A DNA stretch of 42,433 nucleotides from Fragilaria crotonensis (lineage: Eukaryota; Bacillariophyta; Fragilariophyceae; Fragilariales; Fragilariaceae): positions 1 through 42,433 of the forward strand of contig JAKSYS010000547.1 of NCBI GenBank assembly GCA_022925895.1, read 5' to 3'. The position numbers were made by a program, and so were the translations under genes. This document shows, in pieces, positions 1-12,135 of the stretch (positions within the stretch are counted from its first letter, which is position 1; each line of letters begins with the position of its first letter). The notes under the pieces were generated by a model. That model ran no database searches. It worked only from the letters and a program-made list of their open reading frames with translations, and was not told where the DNA came from.

Positions 1-187
1 ATACGGCTAGTGTGCGTGGTGAATGTCGTAGTAACTGCGATTACTAGTTGCACGCTACTTGTCTGTACGTAGACTCTAGTATTGCTAGGTCTCTACAGGT
101 GGTGTAGTGGGCTAAAACGCAGTGGCTATGACGTTAGTATAATCTAGAGTCGAACGATTCCTGGATGGCTTGCTAGCACAGGCCTGT
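1..187 (-). repeat. Split direct repeat box B2 (outer 3' end of the YR element)
   Basis: This stretch matches 487-677 almost base for base; differences are mainly one- or two-base indels, for example near TTACTAGTTG versus TTACTGAATTG. Similarity ends after GGCCTGT at 187. The copy starts at the window edge, so its outer limit is unknown. In the element's orientation it is the terminal B2. Confidence 0.85.
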
Positions 188-204
188 GGGATGGCAGGTG
201 GGTA

Positions 205-440
205 GCGAAAAAACAGTTAGGCAGATATATCATCACCATTGCCGTCGATTCGATCACTCATGAGAAAATTAGGTGGTGAGCTCTCCATCAAGAATAATAC
301 TTTTCCGCCAGTGGTGCCATTCACTATTGTCCTCAGTCCGTCAATCTCCGACTGCGCAGCAACTAAGGCTGTAGGGCATATTGTAGTGTACTGTGAGCTA
401 GTACGCCTGCTGCAGTATTGCCTACGGTCTTATCTGTAAG
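205..440 (-). repeat. Split direct repeat box A2 (internal copy of the 5' end)
   Basis: The copy begins GCGAAAAAACAGTTAGGCAG and ends TCTTATCTGTAAG, and matches 8966-9205 in the same orientation. It lies between B1 and B2 with short spacers at 188-204 and 441-486. The most divergent part is the middle, around GCCAGTGGTGCCATTC. Confidence 0.9.
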
Positions 441-486
441 AATCCAGGTTCCCAGATGTCGCCTCGGCTTGTCACAGCATCCGGCG

Positions 487-677
487 ATACGGCTAGTGTG
501 CGTGGTGAATGTCGTAGTAACTGCGATTACTGAATTGCACGCTACTTGTCTGTACGTAGACTCTGGTATTGCTGAGGTCTCTACAGGTGGTGTAGTGGGC
601 TAAAACGCAGTGGCTATGACGTTAGTATAATCCTAGAGTCGAACGATTCCTGGATGGCTTCACTAGCACAGGCCTGT
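487..677 (-). repeat. Split direct repeat box B1 (inner copy)
   Basis: It is the second copy of the 1-187 sequence, from ATACGGCTAGTGTGCG to GGCCTGT. In element orientation it follows the recombinase gene and the palindrome array, and precedes A2, as expected for B1 of a split-repeat element. Confidence 0.88.
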
Positions 678-1463
678 CCCATGTCGTCTGCTGACGCGGC
701 TGTTCTGCAGGGGCTGCCGTGGTGGGTGCCATATCGATCGGATGCAGGCGGACTTGCCGGTGCACGCAAAAATAACAACAGCAAAAAAATAAAAAAATTT
801 GAAGTTTGGTACGGAGATGCATGTGTATCTGTGTCGCGTGTTGGGTGGAATGTCAAATTGCACTGAACACTGAAAACAACTGGTACTGGAACAAATTATT
901 CCAGTGCCCCGCGGTTCGCGGTATGCCCATAGGCCATTTCCGCGGGGCTACTGGAAAAAAATAATCCAGTGCCGCGCGGTTCCGCGGTCCGCGGTCAGTC
1001 TATTTCCGCGGGGCTACTGGAATAAAATTTTCCAGTGCCCCGCGGTCCGCGGTCCGTCCATTTCCGCGGGGCTACTGGAACAAAACATTCAGTGCCCCGC
1101 GATCCGCGATCTGCGGTCCGCGGTCAGTCCATTTCCGCGGGGCTACTGGAATAAATTTTCCAGTGCCCCGGTCATTCCACTCGGCTGGACTAAGGTATGC
1201 GAGCACTACCGGCAACAAAGTATGCCAGCGCATACTTCATGTACTAGTACTACTCGTGTAGCGTACTTTAGAATTTTTGGATATGCGATACATGCGTATG
1301 CATTATGAATCATGAATCATGATATCATGATGCATTTGGCATTTGATGTTGGTATCTTGGAGTTTTGTTTCTTTTGTATGATGTGTTTGCGATGCTTGGG
1401 CTAAATGCGACGTTACTTCTATGATGCGATGCGACTATGAGTGCTTCATTAATGCTGTCACCA
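678..1463. other. Untranslated 3' region of the YR element
   Basis: This is the gap between the end of the recombinase frames and box B1. It holds the palindrome array (890-1170), a perfect 16-bp palindrome ATCATGATATCATGAT at 1316-1331, and otherwise no frame I can connect to a protein. Confidence 0.6.
890..1170. repeat. Array of 4.5 tandem palindromic units, about 58-71 bp each
   Basis: Each unit reads roughly TACTGGAA, a short A/T core, TTCCAGTGCCCCGCGG, a GGTCCGCGGTC-rich spacer, then CCATTTCCGCGGGGC leading into the next unit. The right end of one unit and the left end of the next form an inverted repeat: CCGCGGGGCTACTGGAA pairs with TTCCAGTGCCCCGCGG around an A/T loop, for example 1006-1045. 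Spacer length varies. It lies between the recombinase gene and box B1, so it could act in the transcript's 3' region or in processing of a replication intermediate; that role is inference. Confidence 0.88.
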
Positions 1464-2774
1464 TTATAGGAAGTTTGGGATGCAGCTGGCATCAGCAAGG
1501 GCGTCATTATGTCGCCGAGACGTGACTGCCAGATTGCGAAGGTAAGTCATGAATGCATTTGATTTCCATCGCAGGAGGTGTTTAATTTCCATTTCATGGA
1601 ATCCCATCGCATATAGGGTGGTGGCGCAACACGCAATGAGTGTGCTGACCACATTTGGAGCTCTGCTTTGTTCTTGATTGGGTCAAGATTGAACATTTTG
1701 GATGCAGCATCCGCATGCACGTTTCAACAGCTTCCGATGTTATGTTGCATGGGTCCCATCTTTGCTTTGAACGCTTAAAGGTATTGTTGTGTCTGATTTT
1801 GTTATGGTCGCGTGTCGTGCTAGGATACGCATGAAATGCGTAACAAAGCAGACTTTTGGGTTTTGACATTGCAGACGAATAACTTTTTCTCCATTCTCAC
1901 CATTCTTTTGCTCTTCAAATCGCAGGTGGATGCTACCGACAGATGCCGGATATGTGAGTGCTTCTGTTAGTGAAAGCCTTTTGTTTGTTGTTGATGAGCA
2001 TTGGATATCCTTCAATGTGAATGCGTAGGCGTTGCCAAAGCGGTTTTTGTGATATGTGGATATGTCGCGTTTGGATGAATCGGTTTGCATCCATTCTACG
2101 CCTCTGCATCCTGCGTAGAGGTTGCATAGTGTCCAATCAGCTAGCGCTGCCATGAGACAACAATCATCCTTTTGGGCGTCAGTTGTGTTGGCAATGAAGG
2201 CGTGCATTTCCAGAGTGAATGGTTCGCGTCTATTTGGGACGGATTCCCATCGTTGGACTTCGGCGAGTACTTTGGTGATTGCTGGTGCCATTTTGGTGTC
2301 AGCTGTTGATCTGAATCGGGGATCAATATCTCTGAATCGTCCAAGGAATTTTGCGACATCAGTAGAAAAGCTCCTGATGGTTCCTGCTTTTAATGAACGG
2401 CAGTGGGTGATGATCCTGTCGCGAGGTGTGTTGCATAAGGCCAGCTGATAATTGGCGCGTTCTTGACTTTGGGTCTGAAGTCGCCAGTCATCTGTAAGCT
2501 TTACAGTGTGACAAAAGATGAAGTAATGGATTCTCCTGCTTCGAATTGTCCGAGCAGTTTTGGCAGTGTTGTTGTTGCTATCCATTGCTCGTTGAACAGC
2601 CTGGATGCCAGGCTTGATAAGAGCTCTGGACTCGGGCGGAAATAGCGATAGGATGCGAGTTTCGGCTCCTTCTCGAATATCTGTTGATGGCGCAGTGCCG
2701 GGGAAGGTAAGTGAGTTGGTGGGCGTGACAAAAAATCGGCGAGGAGATTTGTTGCTCCTGACACATGTGTACAT
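1464..2774 (-). CDS. Tyrosine recombinase of the YR retrotransposon (split frames)
   Basis: The product should cut and rejoin DNA to insert the circular cDNA of the element. The long frame 2774-1740 (344 aa) carries an alpha-helical N-terminal half, then the first catalytic arginine in LYAGCRGVEW (about residue 224) and a lysine-bearing beta segment, LRFEEQKNG. The rest lies in neighbouring frames: AHSLRV, giving the H-x-x-R box, at 1631-1642, and LLRWKSNAFMTYLRNL with the presumed nucleophile Tyr at 1542-1544 in the frame 1652-1464. All conserved R, H-x-x-R and Y positions can therefore be found, in order, but across three frames. The N-terminus overlaps the RNase H frame by about 270 nt. 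Frame breaks may be real decay or assembly indels. Confidence 0.8.
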
Positions 2775-4054
2775 GAAACCGCAAGTGTGGTTCTTTCAAG
2801 CAAAGCTGCATATAGGTGGACCATCTGTTGACCTCGTTCCGATTTTGCGGAAACTTTATGCGCCCAGTTTTGGGATGGGCTATTGTCTGTTCTGATCAGC
2901 AGTTTGGCGAGTTTTGCGATACCATTTGGAAATGTTCTTTGCAATGGTTTGTACAGCCCTGTCTCCTCCATTAGTGTTATGGTTGCTGCAAGCTGGACTA
3001 TAACGACAACGAATTCCATTAAGTTGATGTGGATTTTGTTGACCGCGATGGCTCGTTTTGTCCTTTCCGACCAGTGCATGTCGAACCAGAATTGGAGGTC
3101 GTGACAGAAGGCACCTCCTCCGGTCAGGCATGCGTCGCCAAAGCTGGTGAATTGAGGGTCGCGGGGTATGACGTGGCCAACGTGCATTTCCCATTTGTAT
3201 GTTCGATCTGCCAGCAATTGGTGCAGGTTGGCAAGTTCTACTTTCACTGCTTGGTCAATTGTTATCTTGGCATTCTTTGTCCATAGCAGGGCTGCCATAT
3301 CGCGCGCAATCATGGCGTCGATTCTGGTGTGTAAATGCTTTGGAAGGTCTGCTTGATACCTTTTGGATTTTCCTTGGCGATTGTAATACCCTCTTACTTG
3401 GTTGAAACGGGTTTGAATTGCGCGGCGAAGTGCATTTTGAAAACTGAAGAACAATGTTCTTCCTTGGCGATTGGCACGCGATGCGTCCGCGAGGGTGCCG
3501 TGGAGTGTTGCTGCCTCCAAAATGTTGCATTTGTCCTTTCCGTCCCATTCGTGCAATAGGTTTGTGATTGACTGCCTTTTATCGTCTGGGAGGGTATAGG
3601 TAAGTGATCTCGTGTTGAAATCCCAACCAACTACTCTCCTGATATGTCCGTACGCTGACCCAAACTTTTCCCAGGATATAGGATCTGGGATTCTGCCATC
3701 TGGATAACCCGCGAGTTCGTATAGACTGATGATACTTGCGGCTGCTGCTCTCGGCATGAGTTCCGATATATCGCCATACATGTTGTCGTCGACATGATGG
3801 TTGTATCGGGTGCAATTCAATTCCTGTTTTGTCGAATACTCCTCGGTTTTTGTGTCGGGGATAGCTATTGCGAATCCATCTCTTTCTGTTTGCGTTGCTG
3901 GCTTTTCAAATGTGAAATTTGGCAGGTATTGTTGGGCGCGTTCCAGTATGTCTTCGTCATGCCATAGCTTTTGGGCTAATTGTTGGCGCGCTCTTGCGAT
4001 TGGCTCCCAGTTTGATGGACTTGTGTTGTCACCAAATGTAAGTCCTGTGTGCAT
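2501..4054 (-). CDS. Reverse transcriptase (C-terminal part) and RNase H
   Basis: This 517-aa frame begins inside the polymerase with TGLTFGDNTSPSNWEP, the motif that follows the first catalytic Asp block. It continues to HHVDDNMYGD, where VDD is the polymerase metal-binding pair. VVGWDFNTRSLTYTLP is the usual thumb/connection signature of DIRS-order polymerases. RNase H follows with its acidic residues in FTSFGDACLTGGG, INLMEFVVVIVQLA and IRTDNSPSQNWAHK, and the closing CTHVSGATNLLADFLSR. No protease or integrase domain is present. The start is not natural: the protein continues from the frame 4715-4029 through frameshifts near 4060 and 4150. Confidence 0.85.
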   Translation of the reverse strand: MHTGLTFGDNTSPSNWEPIARARQQLAQKLWHDEDILERAQQYLPNFTFEKPATQTERDGFAIAIPDTKTEEYSTKQELNCTRYNHHVDDNMYGDISELMPRAAAASIISLYELAGYPDGRIPDPISWEKFGSAYGHIRRVVGWDFNTRSLTYTLPDDKRQSITNLLHEWDGKDKCNILEAATLHGTLADASRANRQGRTLFFSFQNALRRAIQTRFNQVRGYYNRQGKSKRYQADLPKHLHTRIDAMIARDMAALLWTKNAKITIDQAVKVELANLHQLLADRTYKWEMHVGHVIPRDPQFTSFGDACLTGGGAFCHDLQFWFDMHWSERTKRAIAVNKIHINLMEFVVVIVQLAATITLMEETGLYKPLQRTFPNGIAKLAKLLIRTDNSPSQNWAHKVSAKSERGQQMVHLYAALLERTTLAVSCTHVSGATNLLADFLSRPPTHLPSPALRHQQIFEKEPKLASYRYFRPSPELLSSLASRLFNEQWIATTTLPKLLGQFEAGESITSSFVTL

Positions 4055-4715
4055 AATCAGAGTTCCTGTGAAATTGCGCTGTGCATTGCGACCAAATTGG
4101 GGTTATATTTGACGCGTGGGAATGCGCATTGCACGTCGTCATCACCGGTGTGTCTATCGTGTTGGGGTACGAGATTGCCAAATTCCATTGCCAGATTAGA
4201 AATTGCTGAAACGAATCGGCGAAATGGAGTTTTGGTTCGGTGGCTTTGCTTGTCCAATCATTAATAGCATGCGCCCCTGGCCACGGGCGAAAACTGCTAT
4301 CTGATATTGGGCGTGGCTTTCTTCGATGATGTAGAATGTCAACAAGTCCTTGTGGCGTTAGGTGCGTGTTGAGTGTGAAATGGACTATCGCCGGATCCAT
4401 TATTAGGGTGAGTCCTCGTTTGCTTTGTTTGACGATTGTTTTCTCAAATACCTTCGGATTGTCCTGCGCTGACTTGTGGTTGCCATATTGCAGATATGCA
4501 TCGAAATTGGCTTGTGATGCTTCAGCGTTGCAGTATGCTGGTGCTCCGGTTGTCAGGATACGTGTTACGTCGGTAAAGACGTCCGTTGTTACGATGGGTT
4601 TGAGCTTTGCCAGTAGGTGGGCTGCATTGATATGTGCATTCACATGGGGTCCCCCAATGTATCTTACTACCGTTGCAATGTCACCGTTATAGTGCAGGGC
4701 GCATGCGGTTGTCAT
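4029..4715 (-). CDS. Reverse transcriptase, N-terminal part
   Basis: The 228-aa frame opens with LHYNGDIATVVRYIGGPHV, followed by a region with YGNH and KQSKRGLTLI and then HLTPQGLVDILHHRRKPRPI, which leads into the fingers motif SDSSFRPWPGAHAINDW. The polymerase continues through FLIWQWNLAISYP and then jumps frame near 4150, where GDDDVQCAFPRVKYNPN supplies the first catalytic Asp (codons at 4133-4144), and jumps again near 4060 into the frame 4054-2501. The arrangement follows DIRS-order reverse transcriptases. Confidence 0.8.
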   Translation of the reverse strand: MTTACALHYNGDIATVVRYIGGPHVNAHINAAHLLAKLKPIVTTDVFTDVTRILTTGAPAYCNAEASQANFDAYLQYGNHKSAQDNPKVFEKTIVKQSKRGLTLIMDPAIVHFTLNTHLTPQGLVDILHHRRKPRPISDSSFRPWPGAHAINDWTSKATEPKLHFADSFQQFLIWQWNLAISYPNTIDTPVMTTCNAHSHASNITPIWSQCTAQFHRNSDYAHRTYIW

Positions 4716-5330
4716 GGCTCGCCAATCTTGGCGTATGCACTCTGTGCTTTCCCAATCAGATTGGAATCCCTGCAGCTGCCGGAAGTCGATTGGGCTATAC
4801 TTTTTCGAAGTTGTTGTAATTGCCTTACTCGGAACGATGCCTTTTCAAGGGTTTTGGTAGCTCTGCATGACAAATATCCGCTTTTAAGAGCGGCAACAGT
4901 ACGTGACAAAACGATTTCGCTGCAAAGAATGATTGTGAAATTGTATCCTTACCAAATGGTTGTGACAGTTGTATTTGGACGCTCGTTGGGAGGATTTCGG
5001 TGGCAAATGCTTCTAAGTGCTTGATTGTAAGTTTTCTGTTGTCGCCCAGCATGTGTTTACTGTTGTCTTTCTTTCGTTGCGCTCATCAGGTTTGCTCTTT
5101 GCTGGCGTTTGTTGCTGATTTGTAAAAAGTCGCGTGCAATCAGACGTTATTGGCGGTATTGCTTTATCGATCGACTCGGCTGGCTCATGATTGTTTGTTT
5201 TTACCTGCTTTTCCTTTGCCTTTAGTGTCTCGAAATCGCCTTCTATGACCTTTTTGTTTGACTGTTTACACTGAAGAATCGTACCGGCTTCGTACATTCT
5301 TACTGTGGGTCGAGCTGGTGTAATTGCCAT
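4712..5330 (-). CDS. Linker upstream of the reverse transcriptase (broken frames)
   Basis: Three overlapping minus-strand frames (5330-5013, 5052-4825, 4909-4712) bridge the gag-like part and the polymerase. The first is lysine- and glutamate-rich and hydrophilic (KAKEKQVKTNN). The second contains HLEAFATEILPTSVQIQLSQ. The frames appear to continue one another through single-base shifts into LHYNGDIATVV of the polymerase. I recognise no domain. It may be the N-terminus of the polymerase protein. Confidence 0.45.
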
Positions 5331-5602
5331 GCGTGTATGCGTTGGTTCTGGGACATGAAGACAAAGTCTTTAAAAGCAACGGCACTGATTGGTGTGTTGC
5401 AACGATACACATATGGAAATTATGAGTTTTGTGAGATTGGTTTGCTATATTGCTTGGTTTTATGCTGTGGTGTTGTTTGAGTTACCTTGGGGTGTCGCCC
5501 ATGTTGATCCGATGTCTGTCCATTCTACATTTGCTTGGGTAGCTACCCATGTAACAAGTTTGCCTTGAGGTCGGGGCTCACTGTTGCGAGATTTGCTGGG
5601 AA

Positions 5603-5659
5603 GTGGAAAAATTTACAGTTGTGGAATGTGCATGTCTTGCCTTCGTATGCACTTCGGCA
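5603..5659 (-). CDS. CCCH zinc finger of the gag-like protein
   Basis: In the third minus-strand frame, not in the longest open frame there, the sequence reads CRSAYEGKTCTFHNCKFFH. This is a C-x8-C-x4-C-x3-H finger, the form of RNA-binding CCCH zinc fingers. It lies directly after the basic, Asn/Gln-rich segment 6222-5686, where a nucleic-acid-binding gag tail is expected. Gag proteins usually carry CCHC knuckles, so the CCCH form is notable. Confidence 0.55.
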
Positions 5660-5685
5660 GCATAATACCGTGAAGCTGTTCGGTT

Positions 5686-6222
5686 TTATTGGGTGCGGGA
5701 ATATTGGTCCTGGATGAAGAGTCGGGCGGTGCTGTCTGTCGCCAATTGCTTGAGGATTTTCTTTCCCTGAGGTGGTGTTGTGTTGCTAATGAGATCACTT
5801 GGGTTGCGTTGCGGCTGGTTTGCGTTATTGTTTCGTGGTACACGGCCATTGGCTACGCTGGTCTCGTTCGTATTGCTCCCATTTTGACGATTACGAGTAT
5901 TTGGGTGCTCGCTATTCAAGGCTTCGGATGTGGCTTTTCGTTTGTTTGGTGACTCGCCAAGTGGTTGGAAGAGTTTAAACGTGAATGGAGTTTCCTTGTA
6001 TTGCCCCGCTGCCATTGTTAGGATTGCTGTTTGCAAGTTGTGCCTGAGTCTCGCCTTGCGTCTTTGCGTTGGTAAAAATTTCAGGGAGATTGGGAGTCCA
6101 TCCATCAGTGCATTTTGTAGCCGGGTCGGCGTGCAACTGCAACAAACCCTGCAATTGTTGATTGGATGTCTTGCAGGACGTTGAAGTGGAGTTCCTTCAG
6201 GTTGCGATGGAGCTCGAACCAT
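5686..6222 (-). CDS. Gag-like C-terminal region, basic and Asn-rich
   Basis: The 178-aa frame starts with VRAPSQPEGTPLQ, contains a basic stretch (FLPTQRRKARLRHN), and becomes rich in Asn, Arg, Pro and Gln (RNRQNGSNTNET and NNNANQPQRNP). Its end shifts into the CCCH finger at 5659-5603. The composition fits a nucleic-acid-binding tail. No catalytic motif is visible. It follows 6640-6263 in the same direction and is probably the same protein across frameshifts. Confidence 0.5.
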   Translation of the reverse strand: MVRAPSQPEGTPLQRPARHPINNCRVCCSCTPTRLQNALMDGLPISLKFLPTQRRKARLRHNLQTAILTMAAGQYKETPFTFKLFQPLGESPNKRKATSEALNSEHPNTRNRQNGSNTNETSVANGRVPRNNNANQPQRNPSDLISNTTPPQGKKILKQLATDSTARLFIQDQYSRTQ

Positions 6223-6262
6223 TTTCGTCCTTCTGGTGATCGCATTATTCTATCGAATGCAA

Positions 6263-7391
6263 TCACTTCTTTCCACAGGTCGGTGGATTGTCTTCGTTGA
6301 CAGTTATCATTGTATGCATCATTGTATAAAAGTTGCCGATGTTGTTGTTGATCTCGCCCAGCGTATTGGTTCGGCCGAGGTGGTAAAGCTCTGTTGCTTT
6401 TGCTGAGGTACGTGATGTTGCTTCTTCCACTTGTTCTTGCTGGACGACTTTGATTGCGCCTTCTAACCGTGTTTTATAGTCTGCAGACCATGTTCTCGGT
6501 GGTGCGAGGTGATGAAATCCGAAGTGGGTTTTATACCCTCTGGATGAATAACTGTATGCTGGTGTTCCCATTGTGCGGTACGAATTGCCGCAGTGAGGGT
6601 TGGTCAAACATTTCGGCTTCAAGACTGCTGGCGGATGCAAATCGATTCTCTCTGAAGTTCATTTCTGCTGCCATAGACTCAATTGCAATTTGCATGAGTC
6701 GAGTTGCTTTGCTGTTTTGTTGGTCTTTAGCACTTGAATGAACATGGGGTCGACTGTTGCTTTTTGAAGTGCTTGGTTTTGTTCCATCATCGTTGCTTAC
6801 TTCAATGGTTGAGGCGAAGAGGATTTCATAGAAGTGTTGGTGTTCTGTTGCTTCCTTGGCGTGTTCTCGTTCTGTGCTTGTCATTGTCTTTGTTGAATTG
6901 TCTGTGATCGCTGTGGTTAAACCTTTGAGCAACGTTGTAACCATGTTTGGGGATTCATTCGGTGCATCCTCTTCTCGTGAATACTTTTGTGGAGTTGTGA
7001 ATGCGGTTTGACGTGCCATTGTGCTACCGAACGAGATAAATGCCTTTTCTTTTGCTGCCAATACCGCGGTTGTAACTTCATGGTAGACTGGGTCGTTTGG
7101 AGTTAGAAACGTTGGCTTCACAGTGAACTTTGATACGAGGTTGGTATCAGGGATGAATTGCGCTTTGTCTATCTGATCGTAGATGAACAAAGTGTCTTTC
7201 GAATGAATCGAAAAGTTTTGGAGGTTCACCGTTCCGTAACGCATCGCTTCATACCACATATGAAATTCTTCAAGGTTGGTGGCGTTGTTGAGATTGCGGA
7301 CTGAGTCTGTATTATTGACATTGATTTTGCTCCTGTTGGGATCTTGTGTCCTCCTGTGAGGAGGAAAACTTTGGGAAATGCAGCGAAACAT
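6263..7391 (-). CDS. Gag-like middle region
   Basis: Frames 7391-6531 (286 aa) and 6640-6263 (125 aa) overlap and probably belong to one protein. The first, once past the shift near 7331, reads NLEEFHMWYEAMRYGTVNLQ, a helical segment containing KFTVKPTFLTPNDPVYHEV, and a long hydrophilic part rich in Thr, Ser and Glu. The second contains GYKTHFGFHHLAPPRTW and a helical ELYHLGRTNTLGEINNN. I recognise no enzyme motif. Position at the 5' side of the polymerase is the only basis for calling it gag-like. Confidence 0.5.
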
Positions 7392-7939
7392 GGCGTTGCA
7401 TCAGGGTCGGTAATGTCAAGTCCAATACGGTCTGGTCCTGGTGGGTCGGCCACTGTACCATCCTCTGGGTCTGGTCCTTCTTCTGTGATCGGATCAGATG
7501 TCGAGGTTGCCATGTTGAGGAGCGTTGGATGGGAGTTTGACGCTGCGACCGTAATGCAGTATCCCTTAATGTCGCGCATCCTGATTGTAACTGGGCATAT
7601 GATGTCCATGCTGTCACCAAGGGTGCCTGCGAAAACAGCATCAGTTCCGAGAGCTGTTGGGAATGGGCAAGATAGAACTGCCAACGTTGGGTTGGCACCT
7701 GGGATGTCAAGGAGGAAAGCTACCTGGTTGACAAGGTTAGAGTCGCAGATGTTTGCGACACGTGTCATGTCAGGGTAGGTCTTGGAGAAAGTTGTTGCGA
7801 TGCGCTTGACTTTGTCGGGATCAGGGACATAAGCTCCGGCAAAGCTGTTAAGCTTAGCGGCGCTAGCTGCCTGATAGGCAAGATCACGAAGGGTTGGCTC
7901 CGTGTCAGGGATAGGGTCGTTGGCATCGGTGGTGAACAT
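7226..7939 (-). CDS. Gag-like N-terminal protein of the YR element
   Basis: The 237-aa frame starts MFTTDANDPIPDTEPTLRDL, has an alanine-rich helix (LRDLAYQAASAAKLNSFAGA), and a central beta-rich part including DIICPVTIRMRDIKGYCITV, then an acidic, proline-rich loop (EEGPDPEDGTVADPPGPD). It is the first long frame after the 1-kb leader, so it is the likely translation start of the element. It leaves frame near 7331 at an A run, GGAGCAAAATC, where one missing A would explain the shift to 7391-6531. Function is inferred from position only. Confidence 0.55.
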   Translation of the reverse strand: MFTTDANDPIPDTEPTLRDLAYQAASAAKLNSFAGAYVPDPDKVKRIATTFSKTYPDMTRVANICDSNLVNQVAFLLDIPGANPTLAVLSCPFPTALGTDAVFAGTLGDSMDIICPVTIRMRDIKGYCITVAASNSHPTLLNMATSTSDPITEEGPDPEDGTVADPPGPDRIGLDITDPDATPCFAAFPKVFLLTGGHKIPTGAKSMSIIQTQSAISTTPPTLKNFICGMKRCVTER

Positions 7940-8965
7940 TGTGCGGGGACGTTTATTGGTTGTTTAGGGGGCGAAACTGAAATGCTGTGATTACTTTTTG
8001 TGTGCTCTGATTGTGTTTCGTTTATGGATGTGTGTTTGGTGACGACTTTCTAGTAATGTTTTCAGGTAGCAAACAATGTAGGGAATTGGTTTGTGTGTTT
8101 GAGATTGTTTGCAAAGTGGGTCTGAGTTTTCTTACGATTAGTAGCTGTGATCTTTTGGACTTCATACTGTTGTTGTAGTTAATTTGTTTGGCATCTGCTT
8201 GTTGTTAGATGCTTGTGTGTATGACTCTAAGTACTCATGATCGCTACTCTGAGGACTTGTTGTTTGGTATGATAGTCGGGTTCAGTTTACTTATTTTTCT
8301 GATACTGGAGTATGCTTCGTTTTAAAATTGAGCCACACTTGTAGATTACATAGCGTTCCGCGGTTTATTACTTAGGTTGTAGATTGGATATAGTACTGTA
8401 TAGCCCGCTATCTGTATTCGATGAATATGTATTTTCATATTCACGCATTTCGTTTATTGAATTTATCTTCTTGTTATTTGCGATGAATTTTGACGATGAT
8501 GGGGCCATCAAAATTGCTGGTGAATGCTGCAAATTTGCATCTCGTTTTGCAGCATTTTGCTATACACTACTTAGTTGGATACAATGTTGTTTGCTTTGCT
8601 TTATATTTGTGCATGTTTGGTATTTTGCTCGGAACTAGTATACGACGTGTTTATCTTTCGCAGGTGTTTGCTGGTTTGTTTTATCGGTGCTGTTGTTTGA
8701 TGCTCCAAGCAATTGTTGCTTTCGCAATATTGTTGGTTTTGGTTTGCGGCTTTGGTTGGATTGGTCTTTATTTTGCTATTGTAATCGCTTGATTGTGATT
8801 GTTTCGATGTCAATTTCGAAATTTGTTGTTTTGGCGGCGGCGCCGATCGCAGGATCTTTGTTTGTTTGTTTGCTTTACAATAGATACAGCGAACTATTGC
8901 ATTTGCAACTACATCTGTAATGTAGTGTTGTATTGCTTTTGGTTGTTTGCTTCTCTCACATGCTT
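7940..8965 (-). other. Leader of the YR element, no gene
   Basis: About 1 kb between box A1 and the first gag-like frame. On the plus strand it is T- and G-rich with many TTGTTTG words, so the element transcript would be A/C-rich here. Short plus-strand frames at 8384-8981 are hydrophobic through T-rich codons and look fortuitous. I see no promoter motif I would defend. Confidence 0.5.
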
Positions 8966-9205
8966 GCGAAAAAACGGTTAGGCAGATATATCATCACCAT
9001 TGCCGTCGATTCGATCACTCATGAGAAAAGTGAGTGGTCGACTCTCCATCCAAGAATAATACTTTTCCGCCAGTAGTGTAGTGCTACTGGCTGTCCTCGG
9101 TCCGTCAATCTCCGACTGCGCAGCAACTAAGGCTGTAGGGCATATTGTAGTGTACTGTGTGAGCTAGTACGCCTACTGCAGTATTGCCTACAGTCTTATC
9201 TGTAA
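8966..9205 (-). repeat. Split direct repeat box A1 (5' end of the YR element)
   Basis: It begins GCGAAAAAACGGTTAGGCAG and ends TCTTATCTGTAA, and matches 205-440 in the same orientation. On the minus strand it is the first part of the element. Similarity stops at 9205, which marks the 5' boundary. Confidence 0.9.
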
Positions 9206-9489
9206 AGTACATGAATCGACGCAGAATTTTCTTGCGCATCATCTGGTGAAGGAATTTTGGAAAACGGAGCGATACTCGAGGAGATGCGTTTAGTCGAATA
9301 TTTTGGGGGCAGAATTTTTTTAGGTCAATAGTGGGACGCGCGTGTTTCTGTCGTGTTAATGACGACAAAAACTCTTTGAAAACAATTCACGACATCCATG
9401 ATGACGGTAACGACAAGGTAGACAATGATCTAATTTAATCCTAATGCTTTAAACTTGTTCACAACACATAGAAGAAGTGGTCTGATCAT

Positions 9490-10330
9490 CTAGGTGGCCT
9501 CTGGAAGTGGTATGTAGGTCGTCCACTCCCGTTCAAGAGTTGCGAGCTTCGCAACAATTGCAGCTTTTTTCTTTAGATCCTTCATAAGCCCCTCTGCCTT
9601 TGACTCAGGGAGAACCCAACGTATGATATCAACCCAGTCTTTATCAGTCAGTGATTCACTGCATGAACGATACTTTGCAAGAGCTCTTTGTGCGTTTGCA
9701 AGGATCTTCCGTTGCCGATCATTTCTGTTCTGCAACTGTGCAGCAGCTTTGCCGCATTGATGGCAAGCTGCGCCTTTGAGCTTGAAGAGTAATCCTTGAA
9801 TTGCCAATACGACTGCCACAAACATTCCAGATTGAAGATGCCGATAAGGCGCCTTTCGTTTCAAGCAGCTTCTTCACCTGCTCTGCATCATTTGCAACTC
9901 TCATCGCACGACTAGAAACGGGAATGGTGGCAGAGAATACTCCAGCATTGAGTCCATCGTCCTTTGACAACGCCACAAGGTCATCATACTTCACCTTGAG
10001 TTCCTCAAGAGCATGATTTTTCTGTTGCTGTCCCAATTCATGACGCACTCTTTTGTTACTTAGACAACTTCTCGTAAACGGAACAAAACCCACCTTCCTC
10101 CACGAACCGAGGATTTTTTCTTTGGTAAAGCACTTGTCGAATGGCTTCAATGAAACGTCATCATTTTCCCTTCCATTTACCACTGTTGCCAAATCATTAA
10201 ACCCAAGAGACAAGACACCCTCGGCGCGTCCTGTATTGGCACCATCAGCTTGTTCTTCTTCGGTGGCTTCATCGTCCTCGTCAGCCTCTTCCTCCAGCAT
10301 TCTGCTTCGATGATTGGCTTGATCTCTCAT
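9490..10330 (-). CDS. C-terminal region of the DDE transposase (two frames)
   Basis: Frame 10330-9719 starts four bases before the end of the catalytic frame (ATGA overlap after an A run). It contains an acidic stretch (RMLEEEADEDDEATEEEQ) and then KEKILGSWRKVGFVPFTRSC, a segment that follows the DDE core in related transposases. After a break near 9850 it continues in 9864-9490 with LKGAACHQCGKAAAQLQNRN and a helical end. I think these belong to one protein with 11346-10327 and that the junctions are frameshifts. It also resembles C-terminal parts of pogo/jerky-like proteins, but I recognise no separate domain. Confidence 0.55.
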
Positions 10331-11346
10331 TTTTCAATCAAGATGACTTCACCGCGAGCATAAGTTGCTGATTTGAAAGCCCCATAAAGTGCATCCATCT
10401 CTTGTTGGACACTAGTCGCATTCGGGAGGCCCATGAGAATGTAGAGTCCCATTTCAAGGAAGTCGGCTCGCTTCGAGATGCTCTCCTCTGAAGCAACGAT
10501 TCGCCCGGGACCTGAATCAACTTTGAGAATAACAGGACCACAAAGCAGTCTTCCATTCACAGGATCGAACTTGGTTGTCTTGGAGATGTTGGGGTATAGT
10601 GGCAACACTACTTTCTCGATGTACTCAATGAAAAGCGAGTCATCCATGGAACCTCGAGCTCTCACAGAATAGAAACTTGACTCCTCAATCAGCTCGGGGC
10701 ATCCAAACCTTCCCTTGATGGCGGGAAGTCCCTCCAACCACTTAGTCTTCACCCGAAAGTTCTGCTCCAGCTTTGCACCTGAATCGAAAATGTACATCGG
10801 AGGCAATGCCTCGCCAGCTGCGTTCGTTGCGTAGACACCCGTGACGTGCCTACCCGCCTTAACACTTCGCTTGCAACCTCTCTGATAATCAGGATTATGA
10901 TAAACAACTGACCGAGACCCACCCTTGTCACCAGTGATTGAGAGATCATGGTGTGTCTCGTCCATGTTTATGATTCGACGGGTCACCTGATCAGAACGAA
11001 AATCTAACTCTGACAACAAATCACCGTTGCCATTCCTTACTTCTCTATCAATCACAAGTCCCGTAGAAATCAAGTCTTTCTTGGCATCATCAAACCACTG
11101 TTGCAAGTTATCATGGGTTGTCCACTTTGACCGAGCATCCTCCACGGACATCTGGCCTCCTGCTGTGATTCGCTGTGGGTGCTTGGATCGAAGCTTTCTC
11201 CATGCTGACTCAATAGTGAACTTGTTGTCATACTTAGTCCCTGAGACAGCAGCTCCAAGTACTCTCTTTATTTCCTGTCCTCGTAATTCCCCATCAGTTC
11301 CCACTTGGCATACCTCAGTATGAGCGGCCGTAACATCCAACAACAA
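10327..11346 (-). CDS. DDE_1-type transposase catalytic domain
   Basis: This 339-aa frame holds the catalytic core of a pogo/Tc1-mariner superfamily transposase, which cuts the element out of DNA and joins it to a target. The first Asp is in RIINMDETHHDLS (residue 129), followed by the typical VTGVYATNAAGEALPPMYIF. The second Asp is in VILKVDSGPGRI (residue 277), and the third acidic position is in GLPNATSVQQEMDALYGAFK (residue 318). The triad is thus D-D-D, pogo style. The N-terminus is not natural: a shift at about 11358, in a four-A run (CCAAAATCCCC), separates it from the helix-turn-helix frame. Possible alternatives are a domesticated jerky/CENP-B-like gene, but the frames and context favour a transposon. 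Confidence 0.8.
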   Translation of the reverse strand: MLLDVTAAHTEVCQVGTDGELRGQEIKRVLGAAVSGTKYDNKFTIESAWRKLRSKHPQRITAGGQMSVEDARSKWTTHDNLQQWFDDAKKDLISTGLVIDREVRNGNGDLLSELDFRSDQVTRRIINMDETHHDLSITGDKGGSRSVVYHNPDYQRGCKRSVKAGRHVTGVYATNAAGEALPPMYIFDSGAKLEQNFRVKTKWLEGLPAIKGRFGCPELIEESSFYSVRARGSMDDSLFIEYIEKVVLPLYPNISKTTKFDPVNGRLLCGPVILKVDSGPGRIVASEESISKRADFLEMGLYILMGLPNATSVQQEMDALYGAFKSATYARGEVILIEK

Positions 11347-12135
11347 ATCGGGGATTTTGGTACGGGACCTTTCTTCGGAGGGCTCATCCCAATATTACCT
11401 TTGTTGATTTCTCTATAAACAGTTGTTCGACTAAGCTTCCTTGTTCCGTTCAGATTGTATTCTGCATTGAGCCTGGTTACAACTTGTTGGGCTGTTTCAT
11501 TCGACGACCCGCCTTCCTTCTTTTCTTTGATTATCCTCGTGGCTTCTTTGAAAGCCTCTTTAAAGCGACGAGAATCCTCTCTTTCTTGTTGCGCCTGAAT
11601 ACGAGCTGTGCTAGCTTGCTTTGATGTCTTTCTGATCCGCTTCGTAGAATCCGAAAAGGATAAGGACGATGCTTCGGTCAAAGGAGAGGTTTGTTCGTCT
11701 GCTAGCTCTGTCGTCATACTAGGGCCGTGAGTATCAATCACCATTCCTTCTTTGCTGCTCTTGCTGAGGCTTCCACTGAGACACATCCCTCCATTCCGAA
11801 GAGCCCTTTTCACATGATAATGAAGGCTTTGTACCGTAACGCTTTCATGGAGCAGACAAGCACGAAGCGCTTGAATGAGTGACACCTTGTTGCATACGAC
11901 CTGCATATAATTTTATGGTACAAAAATCACGTAGAAAAAAAAATTATGAGTCCTTCACTTATCGATACGTTGTGCATCAAAACTCAATTCACAATGGTGA
12001 TTTGAAAGCCCGTTTAAAAGAGTAACTCACCAATTTTACAGCATCTTCAATGGTGCACCCATCTTTTGAAGGTCTTCCTACTTTAACTGATGCATTGTCA
12101 ATGGACAAAGGACATGCCTTCCTCTTCCTTGGCAT
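11268..12135 (-). CDS. N-terminal DNA-binding part of the DDE transposase, with one intron
   Basis: Exon 1 (12135-12031) begins MPRKRKACPLSIDNASVKVG and contains GRPSKDGCTIEDAVKL; an upstream in-frame ATG at 12183 is also possible. An intron with GTGAGT donor and GCAG acceptor (12030-11901) is removed in phase 0. Exon 2 continues VVCNKVSLIQALRACLLH, a basic Ser-rich region, a long charged helix (EREDSRRFKEAFKEATRIIK), and a helix-turn-helix-like segment, QVVTRLNAEYNLNGTRKLSR followed by TTVYREI. The closing KKGPVPK motif runs into the catalytic frame. It probably binds the transposon ends. Confidence 0.65.
11901..12030 (-). other. Intron in the transposase gene
   Basis: The donor GTGAGTTACT lies at 12030-12021 and the acceptor ATATGCAG ends at 11901. 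Removal joins AVKL to VVCNKV without a frame change. At 130 nt it is longer than the 58-65 nt introns of the host genes in this window. Confidence 0.65.

What the first reader, a model, noticed from the sequence alone, without database searches (positions are those of the whole stretch)
1..9205. Complete split-direct-repeat architecture of a YR retrotransposon
Two different sequence boxes are each present twice in the order A1 - coding - B1 - A2 - B2, with reverse transcriptase, RNase H and recombinase between. The full structure in one piece lets the ends, junctions and recombination site be defined. Such elements are much less documented in stramenopile algae than Copia or Gypsy elements; if this is a diatom it may be a new family.
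Basis: partly seen in the sequence, partly recalled or inferred. Interest (0 to 1): 0.75.

Follow-up and report, generated by a model that had tools for sequence, protein, structure and literature searches.

The report
Tyrosine-recombinase retrotransposon in a diatom
The start of this contig, very likely from a diatom, holds a jumping gene that copies itself through RNA and inserts with a tyrosine recombinase; its relatives in the same genome show where it inserts and suggest that it makes its proteins by alternative splicing.

Summary
The boxes are real: on the minus strand the order is A1-coding-B1-A2-B2, the split-direct-repeat layout of tyrosine-recombinase (YR) retrotransposons. The window copy is not complete: the contig starts inside B2, and contig C844 shows that 50 bp are missing. 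The host is very likely a diatom (silicon transporters). Dozens of relatives exist in this genome, with ends TTRCAGATAAGAC...GGGAATCCNNNGGATTC. Empty counterparts, found for 3 of 13 sites, show no target bases duplicated or lost. Targets resemble the element's own 3' end (GGWTT just 5' of the insertion; 46 flanks). Full, A-coding-B, solo A-B and one tandem form occur; none of 22 testable chains is permuted. RT and RNase H rest on motifs (no Pfam or PDB match); the recombinase matches PF00589 weakly. New here: a donor splice site at the end of gag and two acceptors, before pol and before the recombinase, so that Gag, Gag-Pol and Gag-recombinase could come from one RNA. No RNA was seen. It is a divergent Ngaro-type variant of a known kind; such elements are already reported in stramenopiles (Cafeteria, Ectocarpus; DIRS entries in Phaeodactylum). 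Subgroup membership could not be tested by phylogeny.

The parts
1..9205 (-). YR retrotransposon, coding on the minus strand; 3' end (50 bp of B2) cut off by the contig start
8966..9205 (-). repeat A1; element 5' end TTACAGATAAGAC at 9205-9193
7916..7939 (-). putative start of Gag (MFTTDAND)
5636..5662 (-). start of the Gag C-x8-C-x4-C-x3-H zinc-finger-like motif (CCRSAYEGK); motif found in 8 of 8 other gag ends examined and in the window
5385..5485 (-). putative spliceosomal intron 1 (101 nt): donor AAG|GTAACT, acceptor CAG|TGCCGT; would join Gag to Pol in frame
4299..4319 (-). RT motif KPRPISD
4120..4146 (-). RT motif A region GDDDVQCAF
4025..4048 (-). RT motif B region TGLTFGDN
3782..3799 (-). 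RT motif C region HHVDDN
2723..3145 (-). RNase H-like region with D-E-D-D at SFGDAC, INLMEF, IRTDNS, LLADFLSR
2681..5485 (-). putative alternative intron 2 (same donor, acceptor CAACAG|ATATTC); would join Gag to the recombinase in frame
1467..2680 (-). tyrosine recombinase; R at GCRG 2111-2100, HSLRV 1642-1628, Tyr in LLRWKSNAFMTYLRN 1577-1533; split over frames in this contig
440..677 (-). repeat B1; its end and the start of A2 make the internal junction (imperfect in this contig)
205..439 (-). repeat A2
1..187 (-). repeat B2, truncated by the contig start

Best explanation
A YR retrotransposon of the split-direct-repeat (Ngaro-type) design. Likely cycle: (1) an unspliced RNA running from A1 into B2 is both genome and gag mRNA (inferred). 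(2) One donor at the end of gag is spliced either to an acceptor 76-152 nt on, giving Gag-RT-RNase H, or to an acceptor about 2.8 kb on, giving Gag-recombinase; unspliced RNA gives Gag alone (sites and frames shown, splicing inferred). (3) Unspliced RNA is reverse transcribed; annealing between the repeats lets the B2 and A1 ends be joined, with B1-A2 as guide (inferred; annealing of repeats is part of the published model, PMC6681497 passage, the detail is recalled). (4) The recombinase inserts the joined B2|A1 end, GGATTC|TTRCAG, next to genomic sites that resemble GGATT, with no target duplication or loss (products shown, mechanism inferred). (5) Later crossing-over between B1 and B2 or A1 and A2 leaves A-coding-B, solo A-B, and the reciprocal tandem array (forms shown, route inferred).
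For: Order and ends. Copies. Empty sites: one search gave an uninterrupted counterpart for 3 of 13 joined-flank sites (C429, C598 and the window's own C844/C500); the 6 counterparts fetched align through the junction with no gap within 25 nt of it. Target preference: 46 distinct 5' flanks, G 26/46 at -5 (p 5e-7), A or T 42/46 at -4 (p 1e-6), weaker at -6 and -3 (p 0.03); GGATTT is the best of 4,096 hexamers at -6..-1, mean match to GGATTC 2.37 against 1.50 at 28 control offsets. Forms. Recombinase: R, HxxR, W and Y invariant in 7 of 7; PF00589 in 7 of 7 at E 7e-4 to 4e-3, below the curated cut-off; profile to Cre E 0.05. Introns: donor at the gag end in 14 of 15 copies by script plus L044 by eye, acceptor 1 leading into the Pol start in 14 of 15; Gag-Pol in frame in 6 of 8 copies where both sides were measured, and the recombinase acceptor in the needed phase in 8 of 8; intron 1 lengths (76-152 nt) fall in all three classes mod 3. 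In 4 of 5 copies an in-frame stop lies within 15 codons before each acceptor, leaving an entry window as small as 2 codons for Pol (L048) and 4 for the recombinase (L046). In 10 of 10 pairs of 5 families third codon positions diverge most in all three genes.
Against: No RNA data; the donor for the recombinase acceptor is a guess, chosen because it is in frame. L039 fails the frame arithmetic on the pol side; L040 fails on the gag side, where the open frame used does not carry the gag peptide; in L044 no in-frame acceptor 1 was found. An ATG does lie in frame before the conserved Pol start in 2 of 9 copies (L041, L046; L039 unclear) and before the recombinase start in 1 of 6 (L048). RT and RNase H have no profile support. 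GGATTC itself ranks only 30th of 4,096 at the target; the match is to GGATT. The empty counterparts are repeats, so paralogues and alleles cannot be told apart, and one search scored 40 of 237 candidates. The families share ancestry, so frames and motifs are not independent. Circles were not observed.
Confidence: 0.7

Rival explanations
1. Same element, but Pol and recombinase are reached by ribosomal frameshifting, reinitiation or a non-ATG start, not by splicing.
For: ORF2 and ORF3 overlap by 190-235 nt with ORF3 in the -1 frame in all 6 copies measured, a layout usual for frameshifting; overlapping ORFs are common in DIRS elements (PMC9210276, passages).
Against: Gag and Pol open frames do not overlap in 5 of 7 copies and their relation differs between families; stops sit right before the conserved starts in 4 of 5 copies; no conserved slippery heptamer was seen by eye at the ORF3 entry; donor at the gag end in 15 of 15 copies, one of them by eye.
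Confidence: 0.2
2. A-coding-B copies and solo A-B units are primary insertions, made when a circle with two B|A junctions is resolved by the recombinase before integration.
For: The forms share exactly the same ends; C429, an A-coding-B copy, has a perfect empty counterpart.
Against: Such a circle should also insert at its internal junction and give A-B-A-coding-B; 0 of 22 testable chains show this. Unequal crossing-over explains the forms and the reciprocal array at C368.
Confidence: 0.2
3. An LTR retrotransposon or a nest of unrelated repeats that only looks like split repeats.
For: RT not recognised by Pfam; the flank is itself repetitive.
Against: Same layout in 19 exact chains; no target duplication at 3 sites; recombinase with R-H-R-Y; no inverted repeats of 25 nt or more and no LTR-like pair in 1-12000.
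Confidence: 0.02

Closest known systems
Ngaro-like elements, e.g. those of Cafeteria burkhardae (PMC8547959, passages read)
   Same: A1-ORFs-B1-A2-B2, Gag, RT-RNase H, YR; solo AB repeats; stramenopile host
   Different: Cafeteria proteins are reported to match PF00078, PF17919 and PF00589; here RT and RNase H match nothing and YR only weakly; about 9 kb instead of about 6 kb; putative splicing, which the passages read do not mention for those elements
PAT-like elements (PMC4157794, PMC3266345, passages read)
   Same: split direct repeats; zinc finger in Gag (Pat1)
   Different: no methyltransferase domain found here
VIPER-like elements (PMC6681497, PMC4157794, passages read)
   Same: A1 ... 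B1 A2 B2 repeats, no methyltransferase
   Different: kinetoplastid hosts; RT relation not testable here
DIRS1-like elements (PMC3266345, passages read)
   Same: YR, no target duplication, model with a junction sequence matching the target (3 bp)
   Different: DIRS1 has inverted terminal repeats and internal complementary regions; here direct repeats and a longer, degenerate GGATT-like target

Membership tests
YR retrotransposons (order DIRS) | tyrosine recombinase instead of DDE integrase | tested here: met
   catalytic residues invariant in 7 of 7; PF00589 in 7 of 7, below cut-off; no integrase match in ORFs scanned
YR retrotransposons (order DIRS) | RT and RNase H | tested here: inconclusive
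   motifs in order and invariant in 9 of 9; no Pfam or PDB profile match
YR retrotransposons (order DIRS) | no target site duplication | tested here: met
   3 of 13 sites had an empty counterpart, all 3 with 0 bp duplicated or lost
Ngaro-like | split direct repeats with internal pair downstream of YR | tested here: met
Ngaro-like | no methyltransferase domain | tested here: met
   none in 9 ORF2; only about 76 residues follow the last RNase H aspartate in L039; one of 7 recombinase ORFs gives N6_Mtase at E 0.0038, below cut-off, at residues 228-309. Weak: Pfam misses the RT too
Ngaro-like | RT/RNase H and YR in the Ngaro clade | not testable with these tools
   no reference sequences on hand
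PAT-like | methyltransferase domain | tested here: not met
   same caveat as above
VIPER-like | RT in the VIPER/TATE clade | not testable with these tools
   no reference sequences on hand
DIRS1-like | inverted terminal repeats and internal complementary regions | tested here: not met
   0 inverted pairs of 25 nt or more in 1-12000
Ty3/Gypsy or Copia | LTR pair, integrase, target duplication | tested here: not met
   no profile similarity to three Gypsy-like proteins of the same genome, shallow comparison

The most novel reading that the evidence does not exclude
A deep, diatom-borne lineage of YR retrotransposons, outside the four named groups, that produces Gag, Gag-Pol and Gag-recombinase from one RNA by alternative splicing, and that chooses targets by their likeness to the end of its own B repeat, using only the joined outer ends and not the identical internal junction.
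Probability: 0.35. Interest if true: 0.7.

Novelty: new variant of a known kind. Interest (0 to 1): 0.55.

Why it matters
How split-repeat YR retrotransposons choose targets and balance their proteins is poorly known. This genome offers many copies, exact ends, empty counterparts and a target motif, so both questions become directly testable. The RT is missed by Pfam, so such elements may be overlooked in diatom genomes.

Tried and rejected
Structure prediction of the two window fragments without an alignment gave mean pLDDT 34.9 and 33.2 and was not used. No relatives were found in viral contigs or in prokaryote genome contigs; few peptide patterns were scanned. PDB searches with Pol, RT and RNase H gave only chance matches. 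hhalign against Gypsy-like (the proteins are from one family) and LINE-like proteins of this genome gave nothing; these labels are mine, the alignments are shallow (Neff below 2) and the partners single sequences, so this is weak evidence. A circle that integrates equally at either of two junctions was rejected because no permuted copy exists (0 of 22 chains). Frameshifting at the ORF3 entry was ranked lower. Light-harvesting proteins were tried for host identity and were less telling than silicon transporters; that other silicifying algae may also carry these is recalled.

One search lists 100 of 182 places, exact ones first. The window itself does not chain there, because its B ends are imperfect. 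C105 and C495 share a flank and may be one insertion. RT homology to DIRS-type thumb and RNase H regions, and splicing precedents such as Ogre and copia, are recalled and come from no call.

Full report
Observation. Read on the minus strand, window 9205 to 1 is A1 (9205-8966), coding, B1 (677-440), A2 (439-205), B2 (about 187-1). The boxes recur in the genome at the same spacing. The closest full copy, C844:7501-16780, has 50 more bases at the B2 end, so the contig starts inside B2. C844 also ends with the window's first 39 nt of right flank, so the two contigs appear to hold one insertion. C844's left flank joined to the window's right flank matches contigs C523 and C424 without a break over 222 nt (72 left, 150 right). 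The two contigs differ by 71 substitutions and 75 gap events, 51 of them 1 nt, so single frameshifts in the window should not be read as biology.

Host. Silicon transporters (PF03842) give 19 matches, best E 4e-193, three of them in one 1,456-aa frame on C97. The genome, 62 Mb in 881 contigs, is therefore very likely a diatom.

Anatomy of the family. I took 14 further copies, 8.3-9.9 kb each. Seven full elements measured 8.8-9.5 kb; the 19 full chains span 8.8-10.0 kb. In 5 of the 10 copies in which one search found both pairs, A1/A2 and B1/B2 are 99.6-100% identical, which points to recent insertion. Ends are TTRCAGATAAGAC at the 5' side and GGGAATCCNNNGGATTC at the 3' side, and the internal junction B1|A2 is GGATTC|TTRCAGATAAGAC. 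Genome-wide, the B end occurs 182 times with up to one mismatch against 2 for the reversed pattern, the A start 89 times against 9. Three genes follow one another: Gag (826-971 aa stop to stop in five unbroken copies) with a C-x8-C-x4-C-x3-H motif in 8 of 8 gag ends examined; Pol (950-1,054 aa stop to stop in 9) with RT motifs KPRP.SD, GDDDVQCAF, TG..FG..TSPSNWEP, HHVDDN and an RNase H-like D-E-D-D; and a recombinase (414-429 aa in six, one partial) with R, HxxR, W and Y invariant in 7 of 7. Pfam finds PF00589 in 7 of 7 recombinases at E 7e-4 to 4e-3, below its cut-off, and no RT or RNase H in 9 Pol proteins. Third codon positions diverge most in all three genes in 10 of 10 pairs of five families, a sign of purifying selection.

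Insertion. For 13 sites I joined 90 nt of each flank. Three had an uninterrupted counterpart elsewhere in the genome; for the other ten no counterpart across the junction was listed, in a search that scored 40 of 237 candidates. The six counterparts fetched align through the junction without a gap near it. They are repeats, so allele and paralogue cannot be told apart. At these sites insertion neither duplicated nor removed target bases. Among 46 distinct 5' flanks, position -5 is G in 26 and position -4 is A or T in 42; 45 distinct 3' flanks show no position below p 0.007. GGATTT is the best of 4,096 hexamers at -6 to -1; mean agreement with GGATTC is 2.37 of 6 against 1.50 (sd 0.13) at 28 control offsets, none of 20,000 random draws reached it, and both subgroups (14 and 32 flanks) show it. 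GGATTC itself ranks 30th. The target thus resembles the first five of the last six bases of the element, as expected if the recombinase exchanges strands at GGATT shared by junction and target (inference).

Forms. Chaining exact A starts and B ends gives 19 full A-coding-B-A-B elements, 12 A-coding-B chains (one only 3.4 kb, and C598, in which A2 is broken), 12 A-B units of 260-1,186 bp, one A-coding-B-A-B-A-B (C368), one with an interrupted A2-B2 (C49), one ending after A2 (C817), five chains without a known A1, 15 lone A starts (two of them the window's) and 13 lone B ends. In all 22 chains with a known upstream A and a B|A junction, the long unit (8.3-9.5 kb) comes first. A circle with two equal junctions would give permuted copies as often; none is seen. 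Crossing-over between repeats explains the shorter forms, and C368 is the reciprocal product.

Expression. The conserved Pol and recombinase starts (VPVFFPN, DISRGAE) have an in-frame stop within the 15 codons before them in 4 of 5 copies each. An in-frame ATG before the Pol start exists in 2 of 9 copies (L041, L046; L039 unclear) and before the recombinase start in 1 of 6 (L048). At the end of gag a donor AG|GTA[A/C] is present in 14 of 15 copies by script and in L044 by eye. An acceptor 76-152 nt on continues into the Pol start in 14 of 15; L044 is the miss. Acceptor 2, [C/A]AACAG|AT[A/T]TT, lies at the recombinase start in 14 of 15 copies (L044 not shown). By frame arithmetic Gag-Pol is in frame in 6 of the 8 copies where both sides were measured; L039 fails on the pol side, and L040 on the gag side, where the open frame used does not carry the gag peptide. 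The recombinase acceptor has the phase the donor needs in 8 of 8 measured copies. Among the six clean copies two gag-pol frame relations occur, yet the spliced frame holds; intron 1 lengths fall in all three classes mod 3. I infer three products: Gag, Gag-Pol, Gag-recombinase. No intron-less copy was met among the 15, as expected if unspliced RNA is copied, but none was searched for genome-wide.

Comparison. The layout is that of Ngaro, PAT and VIPER elements (PMC4157794, PMC6681497, passages). Lack of a methyltransferase fits Ngaro and VIPER, not PAT; lack of inverted repeats excludes DIRS1-like. Ngaro elements with solo AB repeats are known from Cafeteria (PMC8547959, passages), Ngaro and PAT-like families from Ectocarpus (PMC12477816, passages; also PMC3145265, one section), and DIRS with 14 entries is tabulated for P. 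tricornutum (PMC5859163, passage). My searches for Ngaro or DIRS with diatoms listed, and the passages I read showed, no description of such an element's structure in a diatom. A search for splicing in YR retrotransposons (listing) and term searches in PMC5633606, PMC8547959, PMC9210276 and PMC12477816 showed none; the library is open-access only. A 3-bp match between junction and target is the published model for DIRS1 (PMC3266345, passages).

Verdict. Known kind, clearly real, with a divergent sequence, a defined target and a likely splicing scheme: new variant of a known kind.

Noticed in passing
window 884-1180: GC-rich repeats of about 58-71 bp (CCGCGG palindromes, TACTGGAA...TTCCAGTG) between the recombinase stop and B1; also in C844, C429 and C598. 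Other copies compared show none there at that threshold, except a weak pair in L045.
   Followed up: partly
window 9490-11906: Minus-strand ORFs beside the element with no Pfam match over cut-off; the first flank bases recur on C523 and C424, so the element probably sits in or next to another repeat.
   Followed up: no
G000 C33:17-26 kb, C736:9-17.5 kb, C591:31.9 kb: The three contigs share the same B2-side flank, but C33 and C736 differ on the A1 side: haplotype, rearrangement or assembly error.
   Followed up: partly
G000 C368:22913-32698: Array A-coding-B-A-B-A-B, the reciprocal product expected of unequal crossing-over.
   Followed up: partly
L059:2642-3481 (C548): A 280-aa frame very faintly like the recombinase (hhalign probability 2.4%, E 0.019) with the motif QKNG; perhaps another YR element.
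   Followed up: partly
G000 C880: Many RVT_1 matches packed on one contig, perhaps group II intron RTs of an organelle genome.
   Followed up: no
G000 C97:29749-33762: Three silicon-transporter domains in one 1,456-aa frame.
   Followed up: no
ends of C500, C844, C105, C180, C385: Several contigs stop inside or just beside element ends, so the assembly seems to break at these repeats and copy numbers are lower bounds.
   Followed up: partly
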